DNA of 64,000 bases, taken from the NCBI GenBank assembly GCA_017465565.1, contig JAFTWA010000045.1:1-64000 (forward strand). Direction: 5' to 3'. The notes below the pieces were generated by a model. It saw only the letters and a list, made by a program, of their open reading frames with translations, was not told the DNA's origin and made no database searches. A program made the translations under genes and the position numbers. The DNA comes from Tyzzerella sp. Lineage in GTDB: Bacteria; Bacillota; Clostridia; Lachnospirales; Lachnospiraceae. This document shows, piece after piece, positions 1 through 39,273 of the stretch; within the stretch, counting starts at the first letter, position 1, and the number at the start of each line of letters is the position of its first letter.

Positions 1-37
1 AAGAATAAATATTGGCTGAAACTCTAAGCAAAAATAG

Positions 38-75
38 AAGAGGAAATGCGAACGCGCACCTCCTCTTGAATTTTG
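38..75 (-). terminator. Possible terminator of the MoxR/DUF58/DUF4129 operon
   Basis: On the minus strand AAGAGGA and TCCTCTT (67-61 and 44-38) can pair around a GC-rich loop and are followed by CTATTTTTG. It lies about 75 bases past the stop of the last gene of the minus-strand operon. The T run is short, so this is moderately supported. Confidence 0.45.
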
Positions 76-141
76 TATTTTTATAAAATTTATTCTCTAT
101 GATTTCCGAACTCCAACATTTGTTTTAGAGTCACTTTTTTA

Positions 142-3838: not shown

Positions 3839-4423
3839 ATGATATTTTTAGCGCTTTTACAAACGACACAAATTGCATATAATGCCGGCTCTCACCTGGA
3901 CGCACTTATGAGTAGGCTGGCTGTGGGTGACAAAGATGCGTTAGCGGAGCTCTACCACGAGACCCGGGCGGCAGTGTATGGATTTTCATTATCCATCACA
4001 AAGAACCCCGCAGATTCAGAAGACGTTTTGCAGGAAACCTATTTGAAGATATGGGCAAACGCAGAGCGCTACACTGCAAAAGGAACGCCAATGTCATGGA
4101 TACTTACGATAGCAAAGAATCTTTCTCTTATGAAGCTTCGCGAAAAGAAGCGTCACCAAGACTTGGAGCCGGAAGAGTGGGATATGTCTTTCCATATTCC
4201 AGATACGGCAGGGAATACAGAGGACAGGCATCTTCTGGAGGCAGCGCTTAATATTTTGACAGATGAGGAGAGGCATATTATTCTGCTTCATGCAGTCTCG
4301 GGACTCAAACACCGAGAAATAGCAGAATTACTTGATATGGCGCTTGCGACTGTTCTCTCAAAGTATCACAGAGCCCTCAAAAAGTTACGAAAATATATAG
4401 AAGGAGTGGAAGCTAATGACTGA
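3839..4423 (+). CDS. ECF-type RNA polymerase sigma factor
   Basis: A 194-residue sigma-70 family factor of the extracytoplasmic-function type. Region 2 spans about residues 30-95 (ALAELYHETRAAVYGF, then DVLQETYLKIW) and region 4 about 135-185 (ILTDEERHIILLHAVSGLKHREIAELLDM). AGGAGGGAGACAATG gives a strong start. The next gene, an RsgI-like membrane anti-sigma factor, overlaps it by 8 bases, so the two are translationally coupled. In this arrangement the sigma factor is normally held inactive at the membrane until an envelope signal releases it, and it usually activates its own operon. The signal sensed here is not evident. Confidence 0.93.
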   Translation: MIFLALLQTTQIAYNAGSHLDALMSRLAVGDKDALAELYHETRAAVYGFSLSITKNPADSEDVLQETYLKIWANAERYTAKGTPMSWILTIAKNLSLMKLREKKRHQDLEPEEWDMSFHIPDTAGNTEDRHLLEAALNILTDEERHIILLHAVSGLKHREIAELLDMALATVLSKYHRALKKLRKYIEGVEAND

Positions 4424-5390
4424 TCGTGAATTAGAACTTAGGTTTAAGAAAGCCGTAGAAGCATGTACGCCAGACGTTCTTGATAAGGTCATGGCTGAAT
4501 GCGACAACTACCAAGATAAAGTAATACCATTTGAAAGAAAACAGAACTATTTTAGAAAATTCACCGCTATAGCAGCAGCGTGCGTGGTAATTGCGGGAGC
4601 AGGAATTTTTGGATTCCTGAATCTGAGCGCCAGTAGAGTTGCAAGTATTGTATCGCTGGAAGTCAACCCAAGCATCGAGCTTAAGATTAATAAGGATGAA
4701 GAGGTTCTGGAGGCGAACGCAATGAACGCGGATGCCGAAGAAATCCTTGCTGGTATGAAACTCAAAGGACTTGATATTCATACGGCGACAAATGCACTCA
4801 TCGGCTCCCTTTTAAAACATGGATACATTGATGAACTGGCAAACTCGATTCTTCTCTCAGTAGAGGATGAAGACTCGGTACGTGGGGATGCACTTCAGGA
4901 AACGTTATCTGAGGAAATTAACGCAATCTTAACTGGTGCATCTGTAAACGCCTCGATTTTATCTCAATATGTGGATGGAGAAGTGGTAGATGCAGTTTCG
5001 CAGGAATATCAGATTTCTCATGGAAAGGCAGCGCTCATCGAACACATTTTGGCAGCTAACAGCAATTACACATTTGAAGAGCTTTCAAAGCTTTCTGTAA
5101 ATGAACTGAGCCTCATTATTTCCAATCCAAAGAACCAGGTTGAAGCTGTGAAAGCAACTGGTGAAGCGACAGAGCAGGCATACATTGGAGCTGAGCAGGC
5201 AAATATGATTGCCTTTGCACATGCGGGAATTGAAGAGAGCAGTGTGTATGATTTGGAAGTGGAAATCGACTATGAATACCACATGATGGTATACGATGTG
5301 GAATTTGAGAGTGGAGATGTTGAGTACGAATATTTCATCAATGCGATGACTGGTGAAGTAGTAGAATACGAAAAAGAATACGCTGAATAA
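4416..5390 (+). CDS. RsgI-like membrane anti-sigma factor with PepSY-like domain
   Basis: A 324-residue single-pass protein. Residues 1-45 form a charged cytoplasmic segment presumed to bind the sigma factor encoded by the overlapping upstream gene. A membrane helix lies at about 48-68. Outside is an RsgI-type middle domain beginning ASIVSLEVNPSIELKIN (about 75-91). The C-terminal 70 residues look like a PepSY domain (ANMIAFAHAGIEESSVYDLEVEIDYEYHMMVYDVEF). The role inferred is signal-dependent inhibition of the ECF sigma factor. A close paralogue without the cytoplasmic part follows at 6043. A terminator hairpin lies 35 bases after the stop. Confidence 0.85.
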   Translation: MTDRELELRFKKAVEACTPDVLDKVMAECDNYQDKVIPFERKQNYFRKFTAIAAACVVIAGAGIFGFLNLSASRVASIVSLEVNPSIELKINKDEEVLEANAMNADAEEILAGMKLKGLDIHTATNALIGSLLKHGYIDELANSILLSVEDEDSVRGDALQETLSEEINAILTGASVNASILSQYVDGEVVDAVSQEYQISHGKAALIEHILAANSNYTFEELSKLSVNELSLIISNPKNQVEAVKATGEATEQAYIGAEQANMIAFAHAGIEESSVYDLEVEIDYEYHMMVYDVEFESGDVEYEYFINAMTGEVVEYEKEYAE

Positions 5391-5408
5391 ATTAAAAAAT
5401 TAAAAATG

Positions 5409-5840
5409 TAATCAAGGGATTTTGGCCACCACTTCAATGAAGTGGTGGTTTTTGAGATTCAGATAGAGTAACACGTTTTTGTAATTTGGCTTTAAATGCA
5501 AGTGTTACAATGTTTCGATTTGTTAAATATCTGGGAAAAACGTCTAGATATCTAAAAACATTCACATCTATCTGTTGCAATTTCAATTCGAAGACACTGT
5601 CGGGCAGACAGTTTTGACTAAAACCTTCTTTCTATCTGTCAGCTTACTAGCTGCTTGTGATTTTAGAACGACTAGAAATGGTTCAAATGAAACTTCTATC
5701 TGCTACAATTTCATGTCGGAACTTGAATTAAACAGATAGAAAAACGATTTCTGCATATTTAGCCGATTTTGACAAGTAAATCTAACAATTATAAGCAGAT
5801 AGATAGGAAGTTTCCACGGTATCTAGACGTTTTTGTAAGT
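5409..5840. repeat. Structured non-coding repeat element A (TCTATCTG/CTAG array)
   Basis: This stretch has no supportable gene. It begins TAATCAAGGGAT followed by the terminator hairpin, then carries a degenerate 45-50 base unit whose core TCTATCTG occurs on the plus strand near 5567, 5631 and 5694 and as CAGATAGA near 5460, 5732 and 5795. In the best units CTAGA lies about 20 bases before the core and CAATTTCA follows it. The segments 5536-5583 and 5790-5836 are inverted copies of each other, starting with AAAAACGTCTAGATA and matching at roughly two thirds of about 48 positions. Element B at 38849-39228 shares several motifs. The function is unknown. Confidence 0.75.
5426..5453 (+). terminator. 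Terminator of the sigma/anti-sigma operon
   Basis: CCACCACTTC (5426-5435) and GAAGTGGTGG (5439-5448) form a perfect 10-bp stem with a 3-base loop followed by TTTTTG. It terminates the sigma/anti-sigma operon. It also lies inside the left part of the structured repeat element A and resembles the ACCACTT hairpin in element B at 38868-38882. Confidence 0.8.
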
Positions 5841-5895
5841 TTTTTTCATACGGAATCCCTACGATACTTTCATTAAAACCAAGTCACAAAGTAAA

Positions 5896-5910
5896 TGGGT
5901 CTCAGACCCA
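5896..5910. promoter_or_regulatory. Perfect 15-bp palindrome upstream of the second RsgI-like gene
   Basis: TGGGTCTCAGACCCA is a perfect palindrome with a single central base, 130-150 bases before the RsgI-like gene. It has no T run after it, so a protein-binding operator is more likely than a terminator. Which protein binds is unknown. Confidence 0.4.
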
Positions 5911-6042
5911 GCGAATCACTCCAAATTCAAAACAAACATGCTCTCAAATATAAATTTTTTTGAAATTTATGCAATAAAATGCCATTCTGTAACATTATCA
6001 TTACGAAAGGTGGAAATAATAAAAATGAAAGGTGGAAAATAT

Positions 6043-7245
6043 ATGAAGAATAATAAGAAAAAAATCGTTGCCGTAGTAGTGGCGTTGGCAGTAGTTTTAG
6101 CAGTTTGGGGAATAATTGAATTCTTAGATGAAATGGACGTAGCAAGTATCGTACAACTGGATGTAAATCCTAGTATCGAGCTTCAGGTAGATGATGACGC
6201 AGAAGTTATCAGAGCAGTTGCATTAAACCAAGATGCAGAAAAGGTTTTAGAAGGCATGAAGTTAAGAGGAGCAGATGCTGATACAGCAGTAAATGCAATT
6301 ATCGGTTCTCTTTTAAAGCATGGATATGTTGATGAGCTGGCTAATTCCATTCTTCTCTCTGTGGAAGATAAGAATGAAGCAAGAGGTGCCAAATTACAAG
6401 CAGAACTCACAGAAGAAATCAACCAGATTCTCAGTGCAACATCAGTGAATGCAGCGATTCTTGCGCAATATGTAAATGATGCTGGAGTAGATGAGATGGC
6501 AGATGAGCTTGACATTTCTAAAGGAAAAGCAGCATTGATTCAGAGCATTTTAGAAGTTAATAGCACTTATGAAGCAAAAGATTTGGCGAAACTTTCAGTA
6601 AATGAACTGAACCTCGTGTTATCAAATCCAAAGAATGAAGTGAAAGATGTAGTTTCAACAGGCAGTGCAAACGACAGTGCTTACATTGGAAGAGATAAAG
6701 CGAAAGAAGCAGCATTTGCTCACGCGGGAGTAGCAGCAAGTGATGTTCGGGATGTAGAAGTAGATTTCGATTACGAATATGGCAAGATGGTTTACGAAGT
6801 AGAGTTCGCAAGTGGCGAATATGAATACGATTACAGCATTGACGCTGAAAACGGCGAAGTGCTCTACTCACACAGAGAATACGATGAGGATAGGGCAGCA
6901 AGTTCATCGAACACAACGACATCTGATGCAGGTACGACAAATGCGGGAACCTCAAATACAGATTCCACAAATACAGGCTCACAAGCCACAGAGAATGCAG
7001 GAGCAGAAAGTAACAATTCAGAAGCGACAGATATTGGAAAAGAAAAAGCAAAATCAATTGCTTTAGCACAAGCAGGTTTCACAGAAAGTCAAGTAACAAG
7101 GCTGAAAGTGGAACGCGATATTGATGATGGAAGAATCGAATATAGTGTGGAATTTACAGCTGACGGTAAAGAATACGATTATGAAATCAGCGGAGCAGAT
7201 GGAAAGATTTTAGATTACGACGTTGAGAGAGAAGACAACGATTAG
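6043..7245 (+). CDS. RsgI-like membrane protein with two PepSY-like domains, no sigma-binding segment
   Basis: A 400-residue paralogue of the anti-sigma factor at 4416. It has only about 8 basic cytoplasmic residues, a membrane helix (about 9-27), the RsgI-type middle domain ([17 protein letters not shown]), a PepSY-like domain, a Ser/Thr/Asn-rich low-complexity linker (about residues 285-328) and a second PepSY-like domain at the C-terminus. Since the cytoplasmic inhibitory region is absent it probably cannot hold a sigma factor itself. Two nearly identical AAAGGTGGAAA sites precede ATGs at 6025 and 6043; the second has the better 7-base spacing, but translation from 6025 would add six residues. 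A longer reading to 5938 is unlikely. Confidence 0.82.
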
Positions 7246-38824: not shown

Positions 38825-38848
38825 AAAGGCTATTGTCAGAACAAAAGC

Positions 38849-39228
38849 ATAATCAAGGATGTGGGGCTACCACTTGTGTGGTGAAGACGCCTAGATTCCT
38901 AAAATCCATCACATCTATCTGACATTTTTTCCTTGTCTAGCGTGTCGACTCGCCTAGAAGAAGAACATGTAGAATGTCTAGTCGTATAGAATTAGCTTGT
39001 TTATAACTTGTTGGAGATATGGGGCCGCCTAGAAGTGGAGGTTGTTGATTAACCTAGACGTCAAAAAAGAACTTGCTTAAGATGCAAAGACACCTAGGAG
39101 AAGAAAATATAAATCATCTAGGCGTATAGATTTAACTTGTTTAGAACGTGGAGGCGTCCAAAAGTTAAAACCCAGAACAATCTAGGCGTCACCACCACAC
39201 AAGTGGTAGCCCCCCAATTTTTGATTAT
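38849..39228. repeat. Structured non-coding repeat element B (CTAG-rich, inverted terminal repeats)
   Basis: A 380-base element bounded by imperfect inverted repeats of about 50 bases (38849-38897 and 39179-39228), each ATAATCAA, a G run, CTACCACTTGTGTGGTG, then GACGCCTAGATT at the inner side. The tips contain a hairpin ACCAC-TTGT-GTGGT. Inside, CTAG occurs nine times (about 38891, 38937, 38955, 38978, 39030, 39053, 39094, 39118, 39182), mostly as CGCCTAGA in either direction. Segments 38953-39017 and 39093-39157 are degenerate direct repeats, 140 bases apart. TCTATCTG occurs once at 38914-38921. No gene is seen. Element A at 5409-5840 is related. Confidence 0.85.
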
Positions 39229-39273
39229 ACTTTTTGATTTTTAATTTTGCAACATCATCTTTGGGCATCAGAA

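What the first reader, a model, noticed from the sequence alone, without database searches (positions are those of the whole stretch)
38849..39228. Unrecognised 380-base structured element with 50-base inverted ends and nine CTAG sites
Seen directly: the ends (38849-38897 and 39179-39228) are inverted copies over about 50 bases, each with its own small ACCAC-TTGT-GTGGT hairpin; the inside has nine CTAG tetramers, mostly CGCCTAGA in both directions, and a 65-base degenerate direct repeat with period 140. There is no gene in it. It could be a non-autonomous mobile element, a structured RNA, or a cluster of protein-binding sites (for example a chromosome-organising or replication-control site). 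CTAG is often rare in bacterial genomes, so such density is notable, though I have not counted it genome-wide.
Basis: seen in the sequence. Interest (0 to 1): 0.78.

Follow-up and report, generated by a model that had tools for sequence, protein, structure and literature searches.

The report
Decayed member of giant-palindrome repeat family
The stretch is a worn copy of a family of long, gene-free, mirror-image DNA repeats scattered through one bacterial genome, often between converging genes, whose better-kept members fold almost perfectly back on themselves and carry ready-made transcription stop signals.

Summary
In detail: inverted ends, small hairpins and nine CTAG sites are real and beyond chance. 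The element is larger (about 38828-39262) and not unique. It belongs to a dispersed family of about 40 loci in this 3.2 Mb genome (hand count). The best-kept members are near-perfect palindromes of 0.4-1.07 kb; 17 of 27 scored lie between convergent genes (8 of 60 gene pairs in the window do), and 12 of 23 carry mirror-image inward terminator hairpins at both ends. Eight members, and loci in three sister species, hold a conserved about 150-nt hairpin core, found in 17 of 397 genomes of the bacterial family (own included) and without an Rfam match. The window copy lacks the core and the terminator T-tracts; it has a CTAG-hairpin module seen only in this genome (none of 115 others). I read it as a decayed, MITE-like element whose relatives act as bidirectional terminators and whose arms are kept alike mainly by DNA-level copying. 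Mobility rests on 8-bp duplications in 3 of 3 testable members with ISL3-like ends; 13 members with this copy's end type show none, and no autonomous partner was found. A structured-RNA role for this copy is not supported.

The parts
38828..39262 (.). Whole element, wider than the finding
   Evidence: Family end at 39236-39253 reversed; end-to-end alignment; boundaries approximate on the left
38843..38897 (+). Left inverted end
   Evidence: 88% match to 39179-39234 reversed
39179..39234 (-). Right inverted end
   Evidence: 88% match to 38843-38897 reversed
38869..38882 (+). Small hairpin ACCAC-TTGT-GTGGT, the family's terminator stem without its T-tract
   Evidence: Sequence; no inward terminator
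39194..39207 (-). Mirror copy of the small hairpin, also without T-tract
   Evidence: Sequence; no inward terminator
38884..38984 (+). Lead segment of the CTAG module plus first CTAG hairpin
   Evidence: Alignment A5 of 7 copies; model R2, 107 bits, by construction
38951..38984 (+). CTAG hairpin unit 1 (8-bp stem, 18-nt loop)
   Evidence: Alignment A4
39026..39060 (+). CTAG hairpin unit 2
   Evidence: Alignment A4
39091..39124 (+). CTAG hairpin unit 3
   Evidence: Alignment A4
5391..5960 (.). Second family member in the window; starts after a stop codon, lies between two rightward genes, right end approximate
   Evidence: R2 matches at 5537-5620 and 5733-5833; sequence; self-complement score 96 against a shuffle maximum of 67; genes
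1..132 (-). End piece of a third member with an ISL3-like end, cut by the contig start
   Evidence: 117 of 130 aligned columns identical to the right arm of C2:113012-113667; end motif at 111-132

Best explanation
It is a decayed, non-autonomous, MITE-like repeat of a large palindromic family. Shown: dispersed relatives; palindromic build of the better-kept ones; frequent position at the 3' ends of convergent genes; mirrored terminator-like hairpins at both ends of 12 of 23 scored members; in 6 of 13 compared pairs more pairing-preserving double changes than single-sided ones. Inferred: copies were spread by transposition (an ISL3-type transposase for the GGCTCTA-ended subgroup, an unknown agent for the GGGGCTGTTGC-ended groups to which this copy belongs); they persist at convergent gene ends because they bring a terminator for each gene; the two arms are kept complementary by DNA-level copying of one arm from the other (template switching in the fold-back). 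The window copy has lost the T-tracts and lacks the conserved core, holds CTAG hairpin units of unknown use, and is probably no longer maintained.
For: Relatives in the own genome: 24 match rows outside the element itself, 72 and 86 rows with two longer relatives (both strands and self counted). Palindromes: C48 1058 bp with 91.4% Watson-Crick pairs, C32 1066 bp 92.1%, C37:112166-113240 1075 bp 93.4%. Terminators in mirror image in 12 of 23. Convergent flanks 17 of 27 against 8 of 60, Fisher P 5e-6. Duplications of 8/8, 7/8, 7/8. Double changes include 74 transversions of 186 in 7 pairs, which a G-U intermediate does not explain, and are clustered (combined P 3e-5).
Against: No duplication in 13 of 13 members with this end type. 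No ISL3 transposase in the own genome. In 7 of 13 pairs single-sided changes outnumber double ones, including both CTAG-type copies (1 to 49). Compared pairs share elements, so the combined P is not from independent tests; single-sided changes also cluster in one pair (P 0.004). A mirrored-indel test gave few mirrored cases. The second window copy lies between tandem genes. Promoter-like and terminator-like scans are consensus matches only.
Confidence: 0.6

Rival explanations
1. The family is a structured noncoding RNA: the hairpin core is transcribed from one strand and selected as RNA, and the window copy is a coreless derivative.
For: Core alignment of 12 sequences: 84.1% of cells paired and 27 of 57 pairs doubly changed, 0 of 500 shuffles reaching either. 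Core in 17 of 397 genomes. G-T exceeds A-C on the motif strand in other genera (74 to 45, P 0.01); pooled 166 to 122, P 0.011.
Against: In the own genus the excess is small (92 to 77, P 0.28, one element of arbitrary orientation removed). The model's structure was drawn from the same sequences, and one of five measures was reached by 24 of 500 shuffles. Orientation in other genera was set by the model. No Rfam family over the core. Inward terminators at both ends would shield the inside from read-through. The window copy has no core.
Confidence: 0.2
2. The outer ends are not transposon ends but bidirectional intrinsic terminator stems, and the elements grew or were copied into such hairpins by recombination rather than transposition.
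For: No duplication next to GGGGCTGTTGC ends in 13 of 13. The end motif occurs once each in 5 of 298 other genomes, at least once as a plain terminator-like hairpin (L146). Complementarity of the outermost bases is stronger within loci than between loci to about 12 bp (0-6 bp 0 of 5000 permutations, 6-12 bp 145 of 5000).
Against: Whole 0.7-1 kb sequences are shared between loci, which needs dispersal of the body. Beyond 12 bp the flanks are not complementary.
Confidence: 0.25
3. The CTAG units of the window copy are an array of protein-binding sites, and the palindromic frame is incidental.
For: About 65-bp units with an 8-bp CTAG stem and 18-nt loop, three in the window copy and four aligned free-standing at C19:33486-33741.
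Against: Seen only in this genome (1 of 116); no partner protein was looked for.
Confidence: 0.08

Closest known systems
Bacterial MITEs (RUP, NEMIS, ERIC, YPAL, Bcr1, Nezha; PMC2229807 and PMC3733652, passages)
   Same: No coding capacity, inverted ends, dispersed, fold into stem-loops; a subgroup has target duplications
   Different: Palindromic to the centre and up to 1.07 kb against 70-300 bp; mirrored terminators; core shared between genera; no duplication for this copy's end type
Pneumococcal SPRITE, BOX and RUP repeats (PMC3049150, passages)
   Same: Enriched between convergent genes; SPRITE resembles a long terminator; BOX has a repeated inner module, as the CTAG units are
   Different: Much longer palindromes, terminators at both ends; no sequence comparison with them was made
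Long inverted repeats with homogenised arms (template switching; PMC8604942 and PMC13155455, passages)
   Same: Arms kept alike, changes mirrored on the other arm
   Different: Here a multi-copy family with shared sequence at many loci
Integron attC sites (recalled, not tested)
   Same: Folded shape kept while stem sequence varies
   Different: No integron integrase or cassette context was looked for; an analogy only

Membership tests
MITE | No coding capacity | tested here: met
   No frame of 60 aa or more inside 38849-39228
MITE | Terminal inverted repeats | tested here: met
   88% over 55 bp for the window copy; left outermost part degraded
MITE | Target-site duplication | tested here: inconclusive
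   3 of 3 testable members with ISL3-like ends; 13 of 13 with this copy's end type show none; the window copy itself has a degraded left end
MITE | Autonomous element with the same ends | tested here: inconclusive
   None found: PF01610 absent from the own genome; an ISL3-like N-terminal piece beside such an end in G006 is a recalled likeness, its test failed
MITE | Length of about 70-300 bp | tested here: not met
   About 435 bp here, up to 1075 bp in relatives; range from PMC3733652
REP element with RAYT transposase | 20-40 bp unit | tested here: not met
   Hundreds of bp
REP element with RAYT transposase | RAYT gene in the genome | not tested
   No search made
Intrinsic bidirectional terminator | Stem-loop plus T-tract at both ends | tested here: not met
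   Window copy: none at either end, one weak terminator-like match inside; 12 of 23 members do have it
Catalogued structured RNA (Rfam 15) | Match to a family | tested here: not met
   None in the window at gathering scores; over the cores only plant microRNA models below their cut-offs
This family's core hairpin | Match to core model R1 | tested here: not met
   No match in the window up to E 10

The most novel reading that the evidence does not exclude
A previously undescribed class of fold-back elements in Lachnospiraceae recognised by shape: a conserved middle and tip (TTTGAGCGNAGCGAGTTT), tip stems that differ between genera but are shared, with compensated changes, within a genome, and base stems that differ between the five examined copies of one genome yet stay self-complementary. 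The arms would be rewritten from each other as DNA and the element moved or recognised as a folded strand or cruciform. The window copy would be a coreless, decayed offshoot.
Probability: 0.17. Interest if true: 0.82.

Novelty: new variant of a known kind. Interest (0 to 1): 0.55.

Why it matters
Near-perfect palindromes of up to 1 kb are expected to be unstable in bacteria (general knowledge), yet this genome keeps many. Their paired differences are a natural record for telling arm-to-arm DNA copying from RNA selection, both of which produce covariation; if copying is confirmed, covariation in palindromic repeats is not by itself proof of an RNA. The core spread over many genera is a handle for finding what moves or uses it. 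For the flagged copy alone the interest is modest.

Tried and rejected
Rfam on the window and on selected loci: nothing over the element or the core. End pattern in named genome contigs: 0. Core pattern: 2 loci, both in Tyzzerella sp. RGIG2081, in named genomes and 0 in viral contigs. ISL3 transposase in the own genome: not found. Insertion into an existing terminator loop as a general rule: flanks are complementary within loci to about 12 bp only; one element, C53, goes further. itself held two rows with a false anchor (C36, C37c); one search repeats it without them. Mirrored indels as proof of arm copying: few found; by eye the window copy lacks about 100 bp at the same place in both arms relative to C40a, which I treat as suggestive only. 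An earlier count said tip stems are unrelated within a genome; one search shows this is wrong for G139 and G409, and the report is mended. The orientation of element C36 was arbitrary (no core), so it was removed from the strand test.

Literature: ten searches showed no description of this family in the listings; that is not proof of absence, since most subscription journals are not held. Passages only were read of PMC3049150, PMC8604942, PMC2229807, PMC13155455, PMC3733652 and PMC8040213.

Rows dropped from the convergence count: four elements cut by contig ends, three CTAG-only loci, C30 (left flank too short) and the four sister-genome rows; the second window copy (tandem genes) was not in that call and would make it 17 of 28. 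Gene calls there are the longest frame within 1.5 kb and are rough. The reversed-pattern control is not independent, because the motif is nearly mirror-symmetric.

Full report
What was checked. The described features are in the sequence. The two ends are 88% complementary over about 55 bp. Nine CTAG lie at 38891-39182, where 0.42 are expected from the window's own density. The stretch 38828-39262 folds 7.0-7.6 standard deviations better than dinucleotide shuffles. The repeat 'with period 140' is two periods of a 65-75 bp unit. The right outer end is an exact family end; the left one is degraded.

Not unique. A search of the own genome with the element gave 27 rows, of which 3 are the element itself and 24 lie elsewhere. 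Two longer relatives gave 72 and 86 rows, both strands and self included. By hand I count about 40 loci. Eleven of the 124 contig ends appear to lie in members (C2, C5, C10, C14, C16, C26, C29, C37, C38, C54, C59), as expected of repeats that break assemblies. Searched with the window element itself, 40 related genomes had no match.

Anatomy of the family. Aligned with their own reverse complements, the longer members are palindromes to the centre: C48 1058 bp with 91.4% Watson-Crick pairs, C32 1066 bp with 92.1%, C37:112166-113240 1075 bp with 93.4%, C9 744 bp with 94.4%. The CTAG-type copies are worse (C40a 80.6%, C15 76.2%), and in the window copy only the ends align under the same scoring. 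In 12 of 23 scored elements the same stem-loop with a T-tract stands near both ends and faces inward, mostly 41-53 bp in and 70-73 bp in C37c; 4 of 23 have one end or unlike ends, and 7 of 23, the window copy among them, have none. Taking the longest frame in each flank, 17 of 27 elements lie between convergent genes, 9 of them with both stop codons within 25 bp, against 8 of 60 neighbouring pairs in the window.

Two interiors. Eight own-genome members hold a conserved hairpin core of about 150 nt: seven and C2a. Other long ones do not, by the model, in the pieces tested (C9, C33, C36). A model from 12 sequences has 84.1% of cells paired and 27 of 57 pairs doubly changed; 0 of 500 shuffles reached either, 24 of 500 reached the count of further pair types, and slid versions pair at 33-48%. 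The structure was drawn from the same sequences. The core was found in 17 of 397 genomes of the bacterial family, own included, in 16 of 334 genera, under strict filters, and in sister species G007 and G003 by DNA search and G009 by motif. The two named loci are in a goat-colon MAG labelled Tyzzerella sp. RGIG2081. The window has no core match. Its interior is a second module: a lead segment and units of an 8-bp CTAG stem with an 18-nt loop, with 9 matches in the own genome and none in 115 others under strict filters.

Mobility. Three members with ends like GGCTCTANNACAAATGTTGGGG at both sides could be tested; all have a direct repeat outside the ends, at 8/8, 7/8 and 7/8 positions (chance of 7 or more about 0.0004 each). 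Two of these sit in the T-tract of a terminator-like hairpin (by eye). Thirteen members with GGGGCTGTTGC-type ends, to which the window copy belongs, match at 0-4 of 8 positions. That end motif also occurs once each in 5 of 298 other genomes, where the neighbourhood shows short hairpins and no obvious transposase. An ISL3 transposase was not found in the own genome. A likeness of a neighbouring frame in G006 to ISL3 transposases is recalled, not tested.

How the arms stay alike. At homologous pairs, double pairing-preserving against other differences are 45:37, 42:28, 40:16, 18:9, 14:6 and 10:2 in six pairs of elements, but 17:25, 3:26, 3:12, 5:7, 4:9, 3:11 and 1:49 in seven. In seven pairs analysed further 74 of 186 double changes are transversions, and they cluster (combined P 3e-5; 2 of 7 below 0.02), but the pairs share elements and single-sided changes cluster in one pair too. 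G-T against A-C mismatches are 92:77 in oriented own-genus elements and 74:45 in other genera. I read this as DNA-level arm copying more than RNA selection, without excluding the latter; the decision needs experiments.

Other genera. In 24 loci the core sits in hairpins of about 120-530 bp. In G139 the five examined copies share the middle and tip and, with compensated changes in one copy, the tip stem, but have different self-complementary base stems. In G409 the tip stems are related with compensated changes. This shape-kept, sequence-replaced base stem is the most unusual observation and lies outside the window.

Compared with what is known. The nearest kinds are bacterial MITEs (passages) and the pneumococcal SPRITE, BOX and RUP repeats, also enriched between convergent genes (passages). 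Size, palindromy to the centre, mirrored terminators and the cross-genus core differ. Arm homogenisation by template switching is described in PMC8604942 (passages), and symmetric insertions and deletions in long bacterial inverted repeats in PMC13155455 (passages). A frequency-of-GT-pairing argument for transcription of REPs is made in PMC3733652 (passages).

Verdict. The flagged stretch is a real but decayed member of a remarkable repeat family. Its CTAG density belongs to one interior module seen so far only in this genome. The family deserves more attention than this copy.

Noticed in passing
window 5391-5960: Second member of the family with an intact left terminator hairpin and an inverted pair of CTAG lead segments; between two rightward genes, both resembling each other (frames 4416-5390 and 5938-7245).
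   Followed up: partly
window 1-132: Cut end of a member with an ISL3-like end; the same end motif stands at the start of contig C16.
   Followed up: partly
L045 484-740 (C19:33483-33740): Free-standing tandem array of four CTAG units outside any palindrome.
   Followed up: partly
L034 3471-3499 and 4480-4508: Promoter-like TTGCAA-17-TATAAT inside both ends of the C48 element, pointing inward just before the terminator; 3 promoter-like sites found against 3.6 in shuffles, so not beyond chance.
   Followed up: no
L148 1074-1171 and L149 1501-1598: Two similar about 98-bp elements with GGGGCTGTTGC-type ends in two other genera; possible small repeat or terminator family.
   Followed up: no
L098-L125, other genera: Core tip motif TTTGAGCGNAGCGAGTTT is nearly mirror-symmetric; exact copies in 16 of 397 genomes.
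   Followed up: partly
L043 64042-64225 (C54) and L057 (C5): Members interrupted near a contig end by sequence that looks like an insertion-sequence end (by eye).
   Followed up: no
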